Source: Candidatus Daviesbacteria bacterium (lineage in GTDB: Bacteria > Patescibacteriota > Microgenomatia > Daviesbacterales > UBA10151). Taken from it: a DNA stretch of 36,764 nucleotides. Positions 11,284 to 15,060 of this stretch are shown piece after piece. Location of the stretch: the NCBI GenBank assembly GCA_030646805.1, contig JAUSKZ010000001.1, forward strand, positions 1-36,764. The letters are read 5' to 3'. Each line of letters opens with the position of its first letter. Position 1 is the stretch's first letter. The notes below the pieces were generated by a model. That model made no database searches. It saw only the letters and a list, made by a program, of their open reading frames with translations, and was not told the DNA's origin. The position numbers and the translations under genes were made by a program.

Positions 11284-12215
11284 TTCCACGAGAAGTTTTG
11301 CTCTACCCATTTCAGTAACTTTTCTGTTTCTTTAAACCTATTATCACTACCCAAAACTATTGTTAAAATTTTTCTATCTTTAATCTCCACTAAACCAACT
11401 AGGTTTTCTTTAGCCTGAGGAGTGGTTCCAGTTTTAATCCCGATTACCCCGGGTAAATCCAACAGCTTATTTAAATTTGTTAAGTGGTGAGTATATGATT
11501 TATCAACCGATGAAACGGATGTCTCACGGGTTGCAAAGATCCTAACTAAATATGGATCCTCAAGAGCCAAGACCGATATTTTGGCCAAGTCTGAAGCAGA
11601 TGAGTAGTGATTGGGACTATCAAAACCAGCCGGATTATCAAACTTACTACTTAAAAGCCCCATTTGAAATACTTCTTGATTCATGGCAGCGATAAAACTA
11701 GCTCTACCTCCGGGATAGTTATCAGCGATGGTAAAAGCCGCATCATTACCGGAATTTAAGAGCAAACCGTAAAGCAGTCCCCGAAACATAATCTGCTCAC
11801 CCTTTTTGAGTCCCATGGAAGATCCTCCAGCTTCGGATAAATCATACACAGTTAATATTTGGTTAGGTTTAAAATATTTAGTGGCCACCAGGGCAGTCAT
11901 AATTTTAGTAGTTGAGGCGATCGGGACTTTTTTATCTACTTCTTTGGAAAAAAGGACGGTATCTGAATCCAAATCCCAAACGAGGGATGCAACAGCTGAG
12001 ATTTCCGGAGGTGAGAGACCTAGGCTCTTTGGCACTTGGATCAACATTTCCGAGCTAGTATCGGCTTTATCTAAAACTAGACCTTCGGCCGAAATCAAAT
12101 TACTAGGAACTTGGATTATTAACTCTCCTTGTAATTTATTTAAAGCTTGGGGCAGTCCCATGATTAACACTACTGCGGCAATCAAAGCCCCAAGAGACAA
12201 AATTACTGGTTTCAT
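11280..12215 (-). CDS. D-alanyl-D-alanine carboxypeptidase family protein (peptidase S11)
   Basis: VPIASTTKIMTALVA (SxxK), SGNDAA (SxN), IGIKTGTTPQA (KTG), N-terminal signal/TM. Confidence 0.94.
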   Translation of the reverse strand: MKPVILSLGALIAAVVLIMGLPQALNKLQGELIIQVPSNLISAEGLVLDKADTSSEMLIQVPKSLGLSPPEISAVASLVWDLDSDTVLFSKEVDKKVPIASTTKIMTALVATKYFKPNQILTVYDLSEAGGSSMGLKKGEQIMFRGLLYGLLLNSGNDAAFTIADNYPGGRASFIAAMNQEVFQMGLLSSKFDNPAGFDSPNHYSSASDLAKISVLALEDPYLVRIFATRETSVSSVDKSYTHHLTNLNKLLDLPGVIGIKTGTTPQAKENLVGLVEIKDRKILTIVLGSDNRFKETEKLLKWVEQNFSWN

Positions 12216-13543
12216 TTCAAAGAGGAAAGCCTGATATCAACCCTTTCCATATCCCGGGGAAAAAGCGAAGCCTCCCGAACGTTGGACAACCCTAAAATAT
12301 GCATCACAATTCTTTCCGATCCAAATGAAAATCCACCCTCAGGGGGCATACCATATTTAAAGGCTTGCAAATAAAGCTCGCTTTTCTTAATGTCTACTCC
12401 CCGCGCGCTGGCTTTCTCAGTTAAAAGTTTGACGTCATTAATTCTTTGTCCGCCAGTCATCCACTCAGTCCCTCGGCCCAATAAATCAAAGCTTAAAGTA
12501 TAGCCTGGATCAGACTCGTCTTCGAAGGTATAAAAGGGGCGTTTGGAAACTGGATAGTGAGTGATAAAAATTAAGTCTGATTCTTTTTCTTCTAAAGCCC
12601 ATCTACAAATTTCCCGCTCGTCTTCCGGTTCTAAATCCGGCTCTTTCCTATTATCCCTGCCGGTTCTTTTAAAGATTATTTCTTGAGCTTCTCTTAACTT
12701 AATATGGGGAATTGTCTCTGGAACTTTTGGAATAGAGGTATTATATGAAGTTAATATCGGACTTGTCTCTTTCTCCACCCGCTCTAAAATATATTTTATA
12801 GAGTACTCTGCCATCTCCATCACATCTAACCAACTATCGATAAATCCAAACTCGGCGTCCAATGTTGTGGCTTCAGTTAAGTGGCGGGTTGTCACCGAGG
12901 GTTCGGCTCTTAAGGTTTTATTGACCGTAAACACTCTCTCAAAAACCCCCACCATAATCTGTTTGTAAAATTGTGGGCTTTGGGCCAAATATGCTTTATG
13001 TTCAAAGTATTTAATCTCAAAAACCTCTGAACCGCCTTCGGCTGCTTGGGGGATAATTACCGGTGATTGAAACTCAGTAAAATCTTTTTTCTTTAAAGAT
13101 TCCCGGAAAGCATCTATCACCACTTCCTGGACTTTAAAAATCTCCTTAATTTTAGGGTGCCTTAAAGTTAAGCCTCTAAAATCTAAAAGGGTGGGGAGTT
13201 GTAAATCTAACTCTTTCCCTCCCATATCAAAAGGTAACTCTTCAGCCTTTGATACAATTTCTATTTTTTCGGCTTGAAGTTCCACCTTACCGGTGGGTAA
13301 ATTTGGATTAATTAACTTCGGAGGCCTAGAGGCAACCTTGCCTTCTACACAAACTACGTCCTGTGGTCCTAAATCTTTAACCTGTTCACCACTGCAAACA
13401 ACTTGCAAAACTCCGCTTCGATCTAAAATATCCAAGAAAGCGATCTTGCCGTGATCACGTCTAGTTTGAACCCATCCACAAATCTTGACCGACTCGTTTA
13501 CTTTATCATTACAATCTAAAACCAAAGTTCTCTGCATGCCCAA
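12212..13543 (-). CDS. aspS: Aspartyl-tRNA synthetase, archaeal/short (possibly non-discriminating) type
   Basis: OB fold CGWVQTRRDHGKIAFLDILDRSG; class II motifs FTEFQSPVI, RAEPSVTTRHLTEATTLDAEFGF, GGFSFGSERIVMHILGLSNVREASLFPRD. ~440 aa with no bacterial GAD insertion. Confidence 0.9.
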   Translation of the reverse strand: MGMQRTLVLDCNDKVNESVKICGWVQTRRDHGKIAFLDILDRSGVLQVVCSGEQVKDLGPQDVVCVEGKVASRPPKLINPNLPTGKVELQAEKIEIVSKAEELPFDMGGKELDLQLPTLLDFRGLTLRHPKIKEIFKVQEVVIDAFRESLKKKDFTEFQSPVIIPQAAEGGSEVFEIKYFEHKAYLAQSPQFYKQIMVGVFERVFTVNKTLRAEPSVTTRHLTEATTLDAEFGFIDSWLDVMEMAEYSIKYILERVEKETSPILTSYNTSIPKVPETIPHIKLREAQEIIFKRTGRDNRKEPDLEPEDEREICRWALEEKESDLIFITHYPVSKRPFYTFEDESDPGYTLSFDLLGRGTEWMTGGQRINDVKLLTEKASARGVDIKKSELYLQAFKYGMPPEGGFSFGSERIVMHILGLSNVREASLFPRDMERVDIRLSSLK

Positions 13544-13575
13544 ATCATAACAACTAACTTTAGCCTTGACAATAC

Positions 13576-13797
13576 TTATTCACCTTTTCGCTTATTGACT
13601 AAAAGATCGCAGATTTGTCTGGGATCTTGCCTAATTAGATCCAGTAACTCTTGAAAAGATTTTAATATCTGACCTTGGTCGCTCTGGACATGACGATGCG
13701 CTTTACCCATTACGATGTTTGAAGATAATTCTTGAGTTCTTTGTTTAACAACGTCAGGGCCAAGAACTCCTTGTTCAACTCTAGTTTCAACTACCAT
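13576..13797 (-). CDS. Hypothetical small protein downstream of a structured leader
   Basis: ATG at 13797 preceded by AAAGGAGGTGATAATT; trimmed from the 76-aa ORF in the track. No family recognised. Confidence 0.65.
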   Translation of the reverse strand: MVVETRVEQGVLGPDVVKQRTQELSSNIVMGKAHRHVQSDQGQILKSFQELLDLIRQDPRQICDLLVNKRKGE

Positions 13798-13834
13798 AAT
13801 TATCACCTCCTTTCTTTTTATTTAAAAAATCCAC

Positions 13835-13858
13835 AAAAAAACCTCCCGTTAGGGAGGC
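13835..13858 (-). terminator. Intrinsic terminator (attenuator candidate)
   Basis: Minus-strand GCCTCCC-TAAC-GGGAGG followed by TTTTTTT. Confidence 0.85.
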
Positions 13859-13913
13859 ATATTGGTTTTTAAATTGTGTCTATTTTTATTTAGACACTAA
13901 CCAACCGCCTCCC
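13842..13913 (-). promoter_or_regulatory. Candidate antiterminator/terminator RNA leader
   Basis: GGGAGGC (13907-13913) pairs with GCCTCCC (13852-13858), TTGGTT with AACCAA, and GTGTCTA with TAGACAC. The first pairing is incompatible with the terminator stem. Confidence 0.6.
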
Positions 13914-13971
13914 GAGAGAGGTAAACCAAAAGAAATAACAACTTTTGGTAGATTGGCTTAACATTAGAGTG

Positions 13972-14001
13972 ATCTTATCAAAAAGATCTTTTTATTGTCA
14001 A
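13972..14001 (-). promoter_or_regulatory. Predicted promoter for the 13576-13797 leader/ORF
   Basis: Minus-strand TTGACA (13996-14001), 18 nt, TAAGAT (13972-13977). Confidence 0.5.
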
Positions 14002-14246: not shown

Positions 14247-14363
14247 CTTAGTTACCTCCTTTTTAAAGATTCTACTCATCTTTAATCTCCCTGTCAATGA
14301 AGCTCCACGGTTTTACGACCGTAGTTTCTTCTCAGCTTCACAGCTTTAGCTGATAAATTATTC

Positions 14364-14392
14364 TTGACAAGAAAATACTACAACATTATAAT
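14364..14392 (+). promoter_or_regulatory. Consensus sigma-70 promoter
   Basis: TTGACA (14364-14369), exactly 17 nt, TATAAT (14387-14392). Confidence 0.85.
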
Positions 14393-14398
14393 TACTTC

Positions 14399-14546
14399 TT
14401 AATGAACTTGAACTTTACAAAAAGCTTTAATGTCCTAGTTAGCCTTCTGAACGAGGTGCTTCTTAGCGCACCTATCAAAGGAGGCCTTTTTAGGTAAGAC
14501 TACCTAAAAAAGAAGTTGCAGGCCTCCTTAACAGGAGGCTTTTTTT
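14399..14546 (+). ncRNA. Structured leader or small RNA with mutually exclusive terminator
   Basis: Hairpin AGGTGC/GCACCT (14454-14472). Long stem AAGGAGGCC/GGCCTCCTT (14477-14485 with 14520-14528) enclosing TTTTTAGGT/ACCTAAAAA. Terminator GCCTCCT-TAAC-AGGAGGC-T8 shares the GGCCTCCTT arm. Confidence 0.65.
14521..14546 (+). terminator. Intrinsic terminator
   Basis: GCCTCCT TAAC AGGAGGC followed by TTTTTTTT. Confidence 0.88.
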
Positions 14547-14576
14547 TGGGAAAAATGTAATAAATTTAAAACAAAT

Positions 14577-15060
14577 ATGAGCGCAGAAAAAGTTAATGAA
14601 TTAAATTTAGAGTCTCAGGTGGTTGATAAAAATACTCAACTGAAATTTTGCCATCAGGCTGGCAGTGAATATGAAAGACTATTAGTGGAGTGTATGGGTG
14701 ATCCGCGGTCTGTTGCCAACAGGTTTGCCTTCCGCAAGTCCGGATCCAGAGCTGAAAGAGGTTATGTTCCAACCTTTGACTCGAGAGAAGCGTTTGACTG
14801 GAATCCGAAAAGGAGAATGGATGGCTGAAAAATTTCTGGAAAGAAAAATGTTCGGTAACGGCGTAGCCATACCCAAAGAACCAACTCCCCACGGAAACGA
14901 CTGGCAGTATGTCGGTTTTATTGGTGCGGGAAGACTTGAAAATAATTATATCTACACTGGCAACGATCCATTAATTTTATCTATCCCTGAACAACAGTTT
15001 GGGATTCCAAAGAAGGACGAAAAATTAATTGATGTTAATATCCAAAACTTTAAGTTGTAA
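14577..15060 (+). CDS. Hypothetical protein encoded in two overlapping frames (possible frameshift)
   Basis: ORF 14577-14828 and ORF 14698-15060 lie in adjacent frames on the same strand and overlap. The second lacks an obvious start and carries the better-looking protein sequence. Confidence 0.45.

What the first reader, a model, noticed from the sequence alone, without database searches (positions are those of the whole stretch)
14364..14546. Second leader of the same design on the plus strand, behind a perfect consensus promoter
TTGACA-17-TATAAT is followed by a ~150-nt RNA with AAGGAGGCC/GGCCTCCTT enclosing TTTTTAGGT/ACCTAAAAA (9 + 9 bp). The GGCCTCCTT arm overlaps the terminator GCCTCCT-TAAC-AGGAGGC-T8. 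Terminator loop and stem match the leader at 13835-13913, so the two look like members of one RNA family. The shared arms are Shine-Dalgarno/anti-SD-like (AGGAGG/CCTCCT), so ribosome or 16S tail sensing is a possible mechanism (speculative).
Basis: partly seen in the sequence, partly recalled or inferred. Interest (0 to 1): 0.76.

Follow-up and report, generated by a model that had tools for sequence, protein, structure and literature searches.

The report
Leucine-sensing attenuators in ultrasmall bacteria
This stretch is a genetic switch in which a ribosome translating a tiny leucine-rich peptide decides whether the genes behind it are transcribed; it belongs to a large, apparently undescribed set of amino-acid-sensing switches in a group of ultrasmall Patescibacteria, and this genome keeps it although it lacks the first enzyme for making leucine.

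Summary
In detail: a perfect TTGACA-17-TATAAT promoter, a 9+10-bp antiterminator, and an overlapping terminator whose hairpin occurs only at the two leaders in this 685-kb genome. Both leaders begin with a nearly leaderless upstream ORF whose stop codon lies inside the antiterminator: MNLNFTKSFNVLVSLLNEVLLSAPIKGGLFR* (plus) and MLSQSTKSCYFFWFTSLGRRLVSV* (minus).

A search for the RNA geometry alone found 103 distinct loci in 142 genomes (reversed-pattern control 0). Their peptides carry Leu, Phe/Tyr/Trp, Ile, Thr or Cys runs that match the downstream gene in 24 of 29 annotated cases (leuA, DAHP synthase, pheS, ileS, thrS and others; permuted mean 7.3). The antiterminator's inner helix, not specified by the search, is kept by compensatory change.

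Best explanation: a classical four-segment, ribosome-mediated transcription attenuator, Leu type here, aromatic type at 13835-14001. Shine-Dalgarno/16S-tail sensing is not supported as the sensor. Unusual: the lineage (no report found for Patescibacteria), the leaderless reading frames, and that this genome lacks leuA and DAHP synthase yet keeps both switches over small proteins of unknown function. Across the family such proteins tend to avoid the sensed amino acid.

The parts
14364..14392 (+). sigma-70-type promoter TTGACA-17-TATAAT
   Evidence: 12 of 12 matches
14402..14497 (+). nearly leaderless uORF MNLNFTKSFNVLVSLLNEVLLSAPIKGGLFR*, Leu type; stop inside the antiterminator
   Evidence: aligned with 30 other Leu-type leaders, most ending in GGLFR or GRSF
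14442..14448 (+). segment 1 (GCCTTCT), can pair with AGGAGGC of segment 2 (anti-antiterminator)
   Evidence: 7-bp helix in the fold of growing prefixes
14478..14486 (+). segment 2 (AAGGAGGCC), 5' antiterminator arm; codes the end of the leader peptide
14487..14510 (+). inner antiterminator helix TTTTTAGGTA / TACCTAAAAA with the uORF stop in it
   Evidence: 10 bp; inner helix conserved by compensatory change in relatives
14521..14529 (+). segment 3 (GGCCTCCTT), shared by antiterminator and terminator
14520..14547 (+). intrinsic terminator (segments 3:4, loop TAAC, T8)
14577..14828 (+). first controlled gene: 83-aa protein of unknown function
   Evidence: no Pfam family; homologues in only 2 other genomes, both behind the same kind of leader
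14824..15060 (+). second controlled gene: 78-aa protein of unknown function, start overlapping the end of the first
13972..14001 (-). promoter of the sister leader, TTGACA-18-TAAGAT
   Evidence: 10 of 12
13890..13964 (-). sister nearly leaderless uORF MLSQSTKSCYFFWFTSLGRRLVSV*, aromatic type
13835..13913 (-). sister antiterminator and terminator
13576..13797 (-). 73-aa protein of unknown function behind the aromatic leader, then aspS (12212-13543)
   Evidence: one aromatic residue in 73; no Pfam family

Best explanation
A ribosome-mediated transcription attenuator of the trp/leu type, specific for leucine. RNA polymerase starts near 14399 and a ribosome starts almost at once on the near-5' AUG of a 31-codon leader peptide. 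If charged tRNA-Leu is plentiful, the ribosome reaches the stop inside the antiterminator; segment 2 is covered, segment 3 pairs with segment 4, and transcription stops at the T run. If leucine is short, the ribosome stalls on the Leu codons (LVSLLNEVLL), segment 1 is masked, segment 2 pairs with segment 3, and polymerase reads on into the two small genes. Without translation, segments 1:2 can pair and the terminator forms. Shown by sequence and comparison: promoter, uORF, the alternative helices, the family and its residue-to-gene match. Inferred: the start site, translation, stalling, direction of the response and leucine specificity here. The role of the controlled small proteins is unknown; I infer they act during leucine scarcity in a cell that cannot make leucine.
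For: Geometry alone found the family: 69 of 142 relative genomes have the pattern, reversed control 0. 88 of 103 loci carry a promoter-anchored uORF ending in the antiterminator; promoter at least 10/12 plus ATG 6-13 nt after the -10 in 55 of 103 against 8 of 2060 shuffles; residue runs of at least 4 in 6 in 68% against 22% and 27% in the other frames and 8% shuffled. Leader residue matches downstream gene in 24 of 29 (permuted mean 7.3, maximum 16 in 100,000; genes). Leu-type relatives of this leader precede leuA (L003) and the same 83-aa family. Inner helix at least 8 bp in 28% against 1% shuffled, 38 distinct left arms with exact complements; outer helix extends by covarying pairs. Run-to-segment-2 distance is mostly 12-20 nt for aromatic, Ile and Thr leaders, which fits a stalled ribosome leaving segment 2 just free (footprint size from general knowledge). 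Segment 1 complement in 64% against 15%. Small ORFs behind leaders avoid the cognate residue (p = 0.005; aromatic p = 0.0002, Leu p = 0.04, Ile and Thr not significant).
Against: The window's own Leu run is weak (best window 3 Leu in 6), so its specificity rests on its relatives. No RNA-seq, start-site or ribosome data. Five of 29 gene matches fail, among them aspS behind aromatic leaders in two genomes. The 103 loci are not independent (several come from one genus). pN/pS of the Leu uORFs is only 0.66-0.73 at saturated distances, weak support for selection on the peptide.
Confidence: 0.85

Rival explanations
1. A general sensor of slow translation (ermC- or whiB7-like): any ribosome slowdown on the uORF, not leucine as such, opens the operon.
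For: The window's Leu run is modest and the controlled proteins have no known link to leucine. It would use the same uORF and helices.
Against: Residue runs across the family match specific amino-acid genes, and close relatives of this leader have dense Leu runs, one directly before leuA.
Confidence: 0.1
2. SD/anti-SD or 16S-tail sensing through the AGGAGG/CCTCCT arms.
For: Arms are SD-like; in 31 of 103 loci the terminator arm is spaced like a ribosome-binding site for the next ORF.
Against: Two further candidate leaders in this genome use other stems; it does not explain the residue-to-gene match.
Confidence: 0.03
3. A ligand- or tRNA-binding RNA (riboswitch or T-box) in which the uORF is incidental.
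For: Long structured leader before amino-acid genes in relatives.
Against: No Rfam family at gathering score; the permissive scan listed no T-box or riboswitch, its best weak hits being Phe_leader for both leaders on the right strand (29.9 and 27.9 bits, cut-off 55). The segment around the uORF varies freely while frame and residue runs persist.
Confidence: 0.02
4. A generic terminator or chance inverted repeats.
For: Terminator-like sites alone are common (12 found, 10.0 expected).
Against: Only two such hairpins in the genome, both with upstream partners and uORFs; reversed-pattern control 0 in 142 genomes.
Confidence: 0.005

Closest known systems
Ribosome-mediated transcription attenuators of amino-acid operons (E. 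coli trp, leu, his, pheA; C. glutamicum ilvBNC, PMC11857589)
   Same: Leader peptide with runs of the regulated amino acid, anti-antiterminator, antiterminator and terminator that share arms, matching downstream genes
   Different: Found here in Patescibacteria; nearly leaderless uORFs; recurrent GGAGG/CCTCC arms; many members control small orphan proteins instead of biosynthesis
Leaderless polycysteine uORF attenuators of mycobacteria (Canestrari et al. 2020, doi 10.1111/mmi.14498; known here by title and citation in PMC13236596 and PMC9094748, paper not held)
   Same: Leaderless short ORF with a run of the sensed amino acid that attenuates an operon
   Different: PMC13236596 describes these as translation attenuation; here there is an intrinsic terminator, and several residue classes
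Actinobacterial leader-peptide attenuators (trp, ilvB, leuS; PMC1262725)
   Same: Leader peptides before biosynthetic and synthetase genes
   Different: Other phylum, other helices; actinobacterial leuA uses a pseudoknot LEU element
Rfam RF01859 Phe_leader
   Same: Best weak hit for both leaders, right strand
   Different: About half the gathering score; not a member by that test

Membership tests
Ribosome-mediated transcription attenuator (amino-acid type) | Leader ORF between promoter and terminator | tested here: met
   uORF 14402-14497, same layout in 88 of 103 loci; translation itself not measured
Ribosome-mediated transcription attenuator (amino-acid type) | Regulatory codons for one amino acid that fits the operon | tested here: met
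   Family level: 24 of 29. Window level: Leu type by relatives; its own operon has no recognised leucine gene
Ribosome-mediated transcription attenuator (amino-acid type) | Mutually exclusive antiterminator and intrinsic terminator | tested here: met
Ribosome-mediated transcription attenuator (amino-acid type) | Segment 1:2 pairing (anti-antiterminator) | tested here: met
   Window 14442-14448 with 14479-14485; 64% of loci against 15% shuffled
Ribosome-mediated transcription attenuator (amino-acid type) | Read-through rises when the amino acid is scarce | not testable with these tools
   Needs an experiment
Rfam Phe_leader RF01859 | Score at or above gathering cut-off (55 bits) | tested here: not met
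   29.9 and 27.9 bits
T-box riboswitch | Match to a T-box covariance model | tested here: not met
   No T-box hit even with E up to 10
Leaderless mRNA | Start codon at or within a few nt of the transcription start | tested here: inconclusive
   ATG 9 nt after the -10 box, so a predicted 5' UTR of about 2-3 nt; start site not mapped

The most novel reading that the evidence does not exclude
In these reduced, host-dependent bacteria, amino-acid attenuators have been uncoupled from biosynthesis. They now drive a set of fast-evolving small proteins, low in the very amino acid that is missing, that carry out a starvation or host-contact programme.
Probability: 0.35. Interest if true: 0.8.

Novelty: new variant of a known kind. 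Interest (0 to 1): 0.62.

Why it matters
Gene regulation in Patescibacteria is almost unknown (PMC11665869). A 2010 survey (PMC2965389) knew leader-peptide attenuation from Proteobacteria and Actinobacteria and added Firmicutes; this adds a deep-branching, mostly uncultured group and gives simple sequence rules (consensus promoter, near-5' AUG, residue run, GGAGG/CCTCC arms) for reading which amino acid a gene answers to. That assigns a condition of expression to otherwise unreadable small genes. That a genome without leuA or DAHP synthase keeps Leu and aromatic switches suggests the switch reports nutrient supply, perhaps from the host, instead of feeding back on synthesis.

Tried and rejected
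Rfam at gathering score: nothing. Homologues of the 73-aa ORF behind the minus leader: no convincing one. Searching by the 83-aa family over 384 class genomes gave only the three known copies, so the small genes cannot be identified by homology. Pfam for ten further long ORFs behind leaders gave no family over its cut-off (one sub-threshold hit). Hits of the pattern outside the class are few and mostly lack clear uORFs or runs (one clear exception, L223, MTNNWQNTFSFFYFSNSVCKGGVL), so I do not claim the family for the whole phylum. pN/pS was too saturated to be decisive. A column-wise structure count on the Leu alignment (A1) was not run because the right arm is misaligned by length changes; arms were compared per sequence instead. 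No structure prediction was run for the small proteins, since without an alignment the model would mean little. Papers on attenuation in Patescibacteria: none held; absence from an open-access library is not proof of absence.

Full report
What is there. On the plus strand a perfect promoter (14364-14392) is followed by a leader of about 150 nt and an intrinsic terminator ending at 14547. The minus-strand leader has the same layout, with MLSQSTKSCYFFWFTSLGRRLVSV. The folds of growing prefixes also show a 1:2 helix (GCCTTCT/AGGAGGC) before the 2:3 antiterminator and 3:4 terminator, the four-segment plan of the trp attenuator.

Not a generic terminator. The hairpin GCCTCCNTAACNGGAGGC occurs in the whole 685-kb genome only at these two leaders.

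Relatives found through the gene. The 83-aa protein behind the leader has homologues in two genomes of the same family. Both are preceded by the same kind of leader: MSKVESLDLKRVEILLSLLILVVLGAITLGGLFR in one and MINSSNILINLLNLDLLLGDLSGRSF in the other. A few hundred bases downstream in the first genome a second Leu-rich leader, MSKTIVYSFRNTENLLGLLLLALLLGAFLGRSF, stands before 2-isopropylmalate synthase. In the other genome three leaders with Phe, Leu and Ile runs lie in tandem next to aspS. A wider profile search over 384 genomes of the class found only these three copies of the 83-aa family. Named relatives place the window in the Microgenomates class, in a family with Candidatus Daviesbacteria.

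Relatives found through RNA geometry. A pattern that asks only for GGAGG, 25-55 nt, CCTCC, a short loop, GGAGG and T5 matched in 69 of 142 relatives and never in reversed form; in a phylum-wide sample it matched in 32 of 384, and the hits outside the class are mostly less convincing. After fetching and removing duplicates there were 103 loci. 88 have a promoter-anchored uORF that ends in the antiterminator; 61 of these start 6-13 nt after the -10 box. Residue runs are far above other frames and shuffles. Classes seen: Leu, aromatic, Ile, Thr, Cys.

The residue predicts the gene. Genes behind the leaders were named by NCBIfam: eight DAHP synthases, prephenate dehydratase, prephenate dehydrogenase and pheS behind aromatic leaders; three ileS and a citramalate synthase behind Ile leaders; two thrS and three aspartokinases behind Thr leaders (two of these Thr/Lys-mixed, read by eye); a cysteine synthase or cystathionine beta-synthase behind CCC; leuA behind Leu; acetolactate synthase and dihydroxy-acid dehydratase behind mixed Ile/Val/Leu leaders (read by eye). 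24 of 29 match; permuted labels give 7.3 on average and never more than 16. The leader classes in that table were assigned by hand and the loci are not phylogenetically independent, but about a dozen different gene families agree. The misses are aspS in two genomes, valS, AlaX and an Asp/Glu racemase.

The helices are kept by compensation. The inner antiterminator helix, not part of the search pattern, is at least 8 bp in 28% of loci against 1% shuffled; among the 44 loci with at least 7 bp there are 38 different left arms, each with an exact complement. Three base pairs beyond the search pattern covary. A complement to segment 2 lies upstream in 64% against 15%. The last run codon mostly lies 12-20 nt before segment 2 for aromatic, Ile and Thr leaders and 17-36 nt for Leu leaders.

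What it controls here. Two small overlapping genes without known family. The genome, about 90% complete, has no leuA-type enzyme and no DAHP synthase, so both switches have outlived, or never served, synthesis of their amino acid. Across the family, small ORFs right behind leaders avoid the cognate residue: aromatic residues 3.8% against 7.2% (p = 0.0002), Leu 6.4% against 8.6% (p = 0.04), overall p = 0.005. This is what one expects of proteins that must be made while that amino acid is scarce. The window's 73-aa protein behind the aromatic leader has one aromatic residue.

The SD-like arms. In 31 of 103 loci the terminator's GGAGG lies at ribosome-binding distance before an ORF, most often 7 nt, so in those members the same hairpin may stop both transcription and translation. 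This may be why the arms are GGAGG/CCTCC. It does not make the arms the sensor.

Comparison with the known. The principle is that of trp/leu attenuation; C. glutamicum ilvBNC (PMC11857589) has the same three-hairpin logic, and mycobacteria have leaderless polycysteine uORFs (cited in PMC13236596). A 2010 survey (PMC2965389) knew such systems in Proteobacteria and Actinobacteria and added Firmicutes; my searches found no paper for Patescibacteria. I therefore file it as a new variant of a known kind: same mechanism, new deep lineage, near-leaderless frames, and control of orphan small proteins in an organism lacking key synthesis genes.

Noticed in passing
window 12212-14001 (-) and L026: aspS, a nondiscriminating type in L026, is preceded by an aromatic leader and a small ORF in two genomes. 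Why an aspartyl-tRNA synthetase should follow an aromatic sensor is unexplained.
   Followed up: partly
L205 (own genome contig C39) 1543-1680 and 2040-2180: Two more leaderless uORFs followed by terminators, MDTNYFNCNWHLKPCRQPAGVSGGSIL and MNTFVLNSFFWHRYFRSNAAVFGALRMK, with other stem sequences and small unknown genes behind them.
   Followed up: partly
small ORFs behind leaders, e.g. L070, L084, L085: Some small proteins behind aromatic leaders contain no Phe, Tyr or Trp at all; most first ORFs behind leaders are unrelated to each other (58 singletons of 83).
   Followed up: partly
L070 and L228: Aromatic leaders precede an AlaX-type tRNA-editing gene (by NCBIfam in L070, by eye in L228) in two genomes, a repeat of one apparent mismatch.
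   Followed up: no
own genome, 32 sites: Many ordinary genes, among them several with antitoxin-like N termini, start 4-12 nt after a consensus -10 box, suggesting leaderless mRNAs are common in this organism.
   Followed up: partly
window 14307-14352: Two inverted repeats (ACGGTTTTACGACCGT and TCAGCT...AGCTGA) lie between the divergent promoters at 14297 (-) and 14364 (+), possibly an operator.
   Followed up: no
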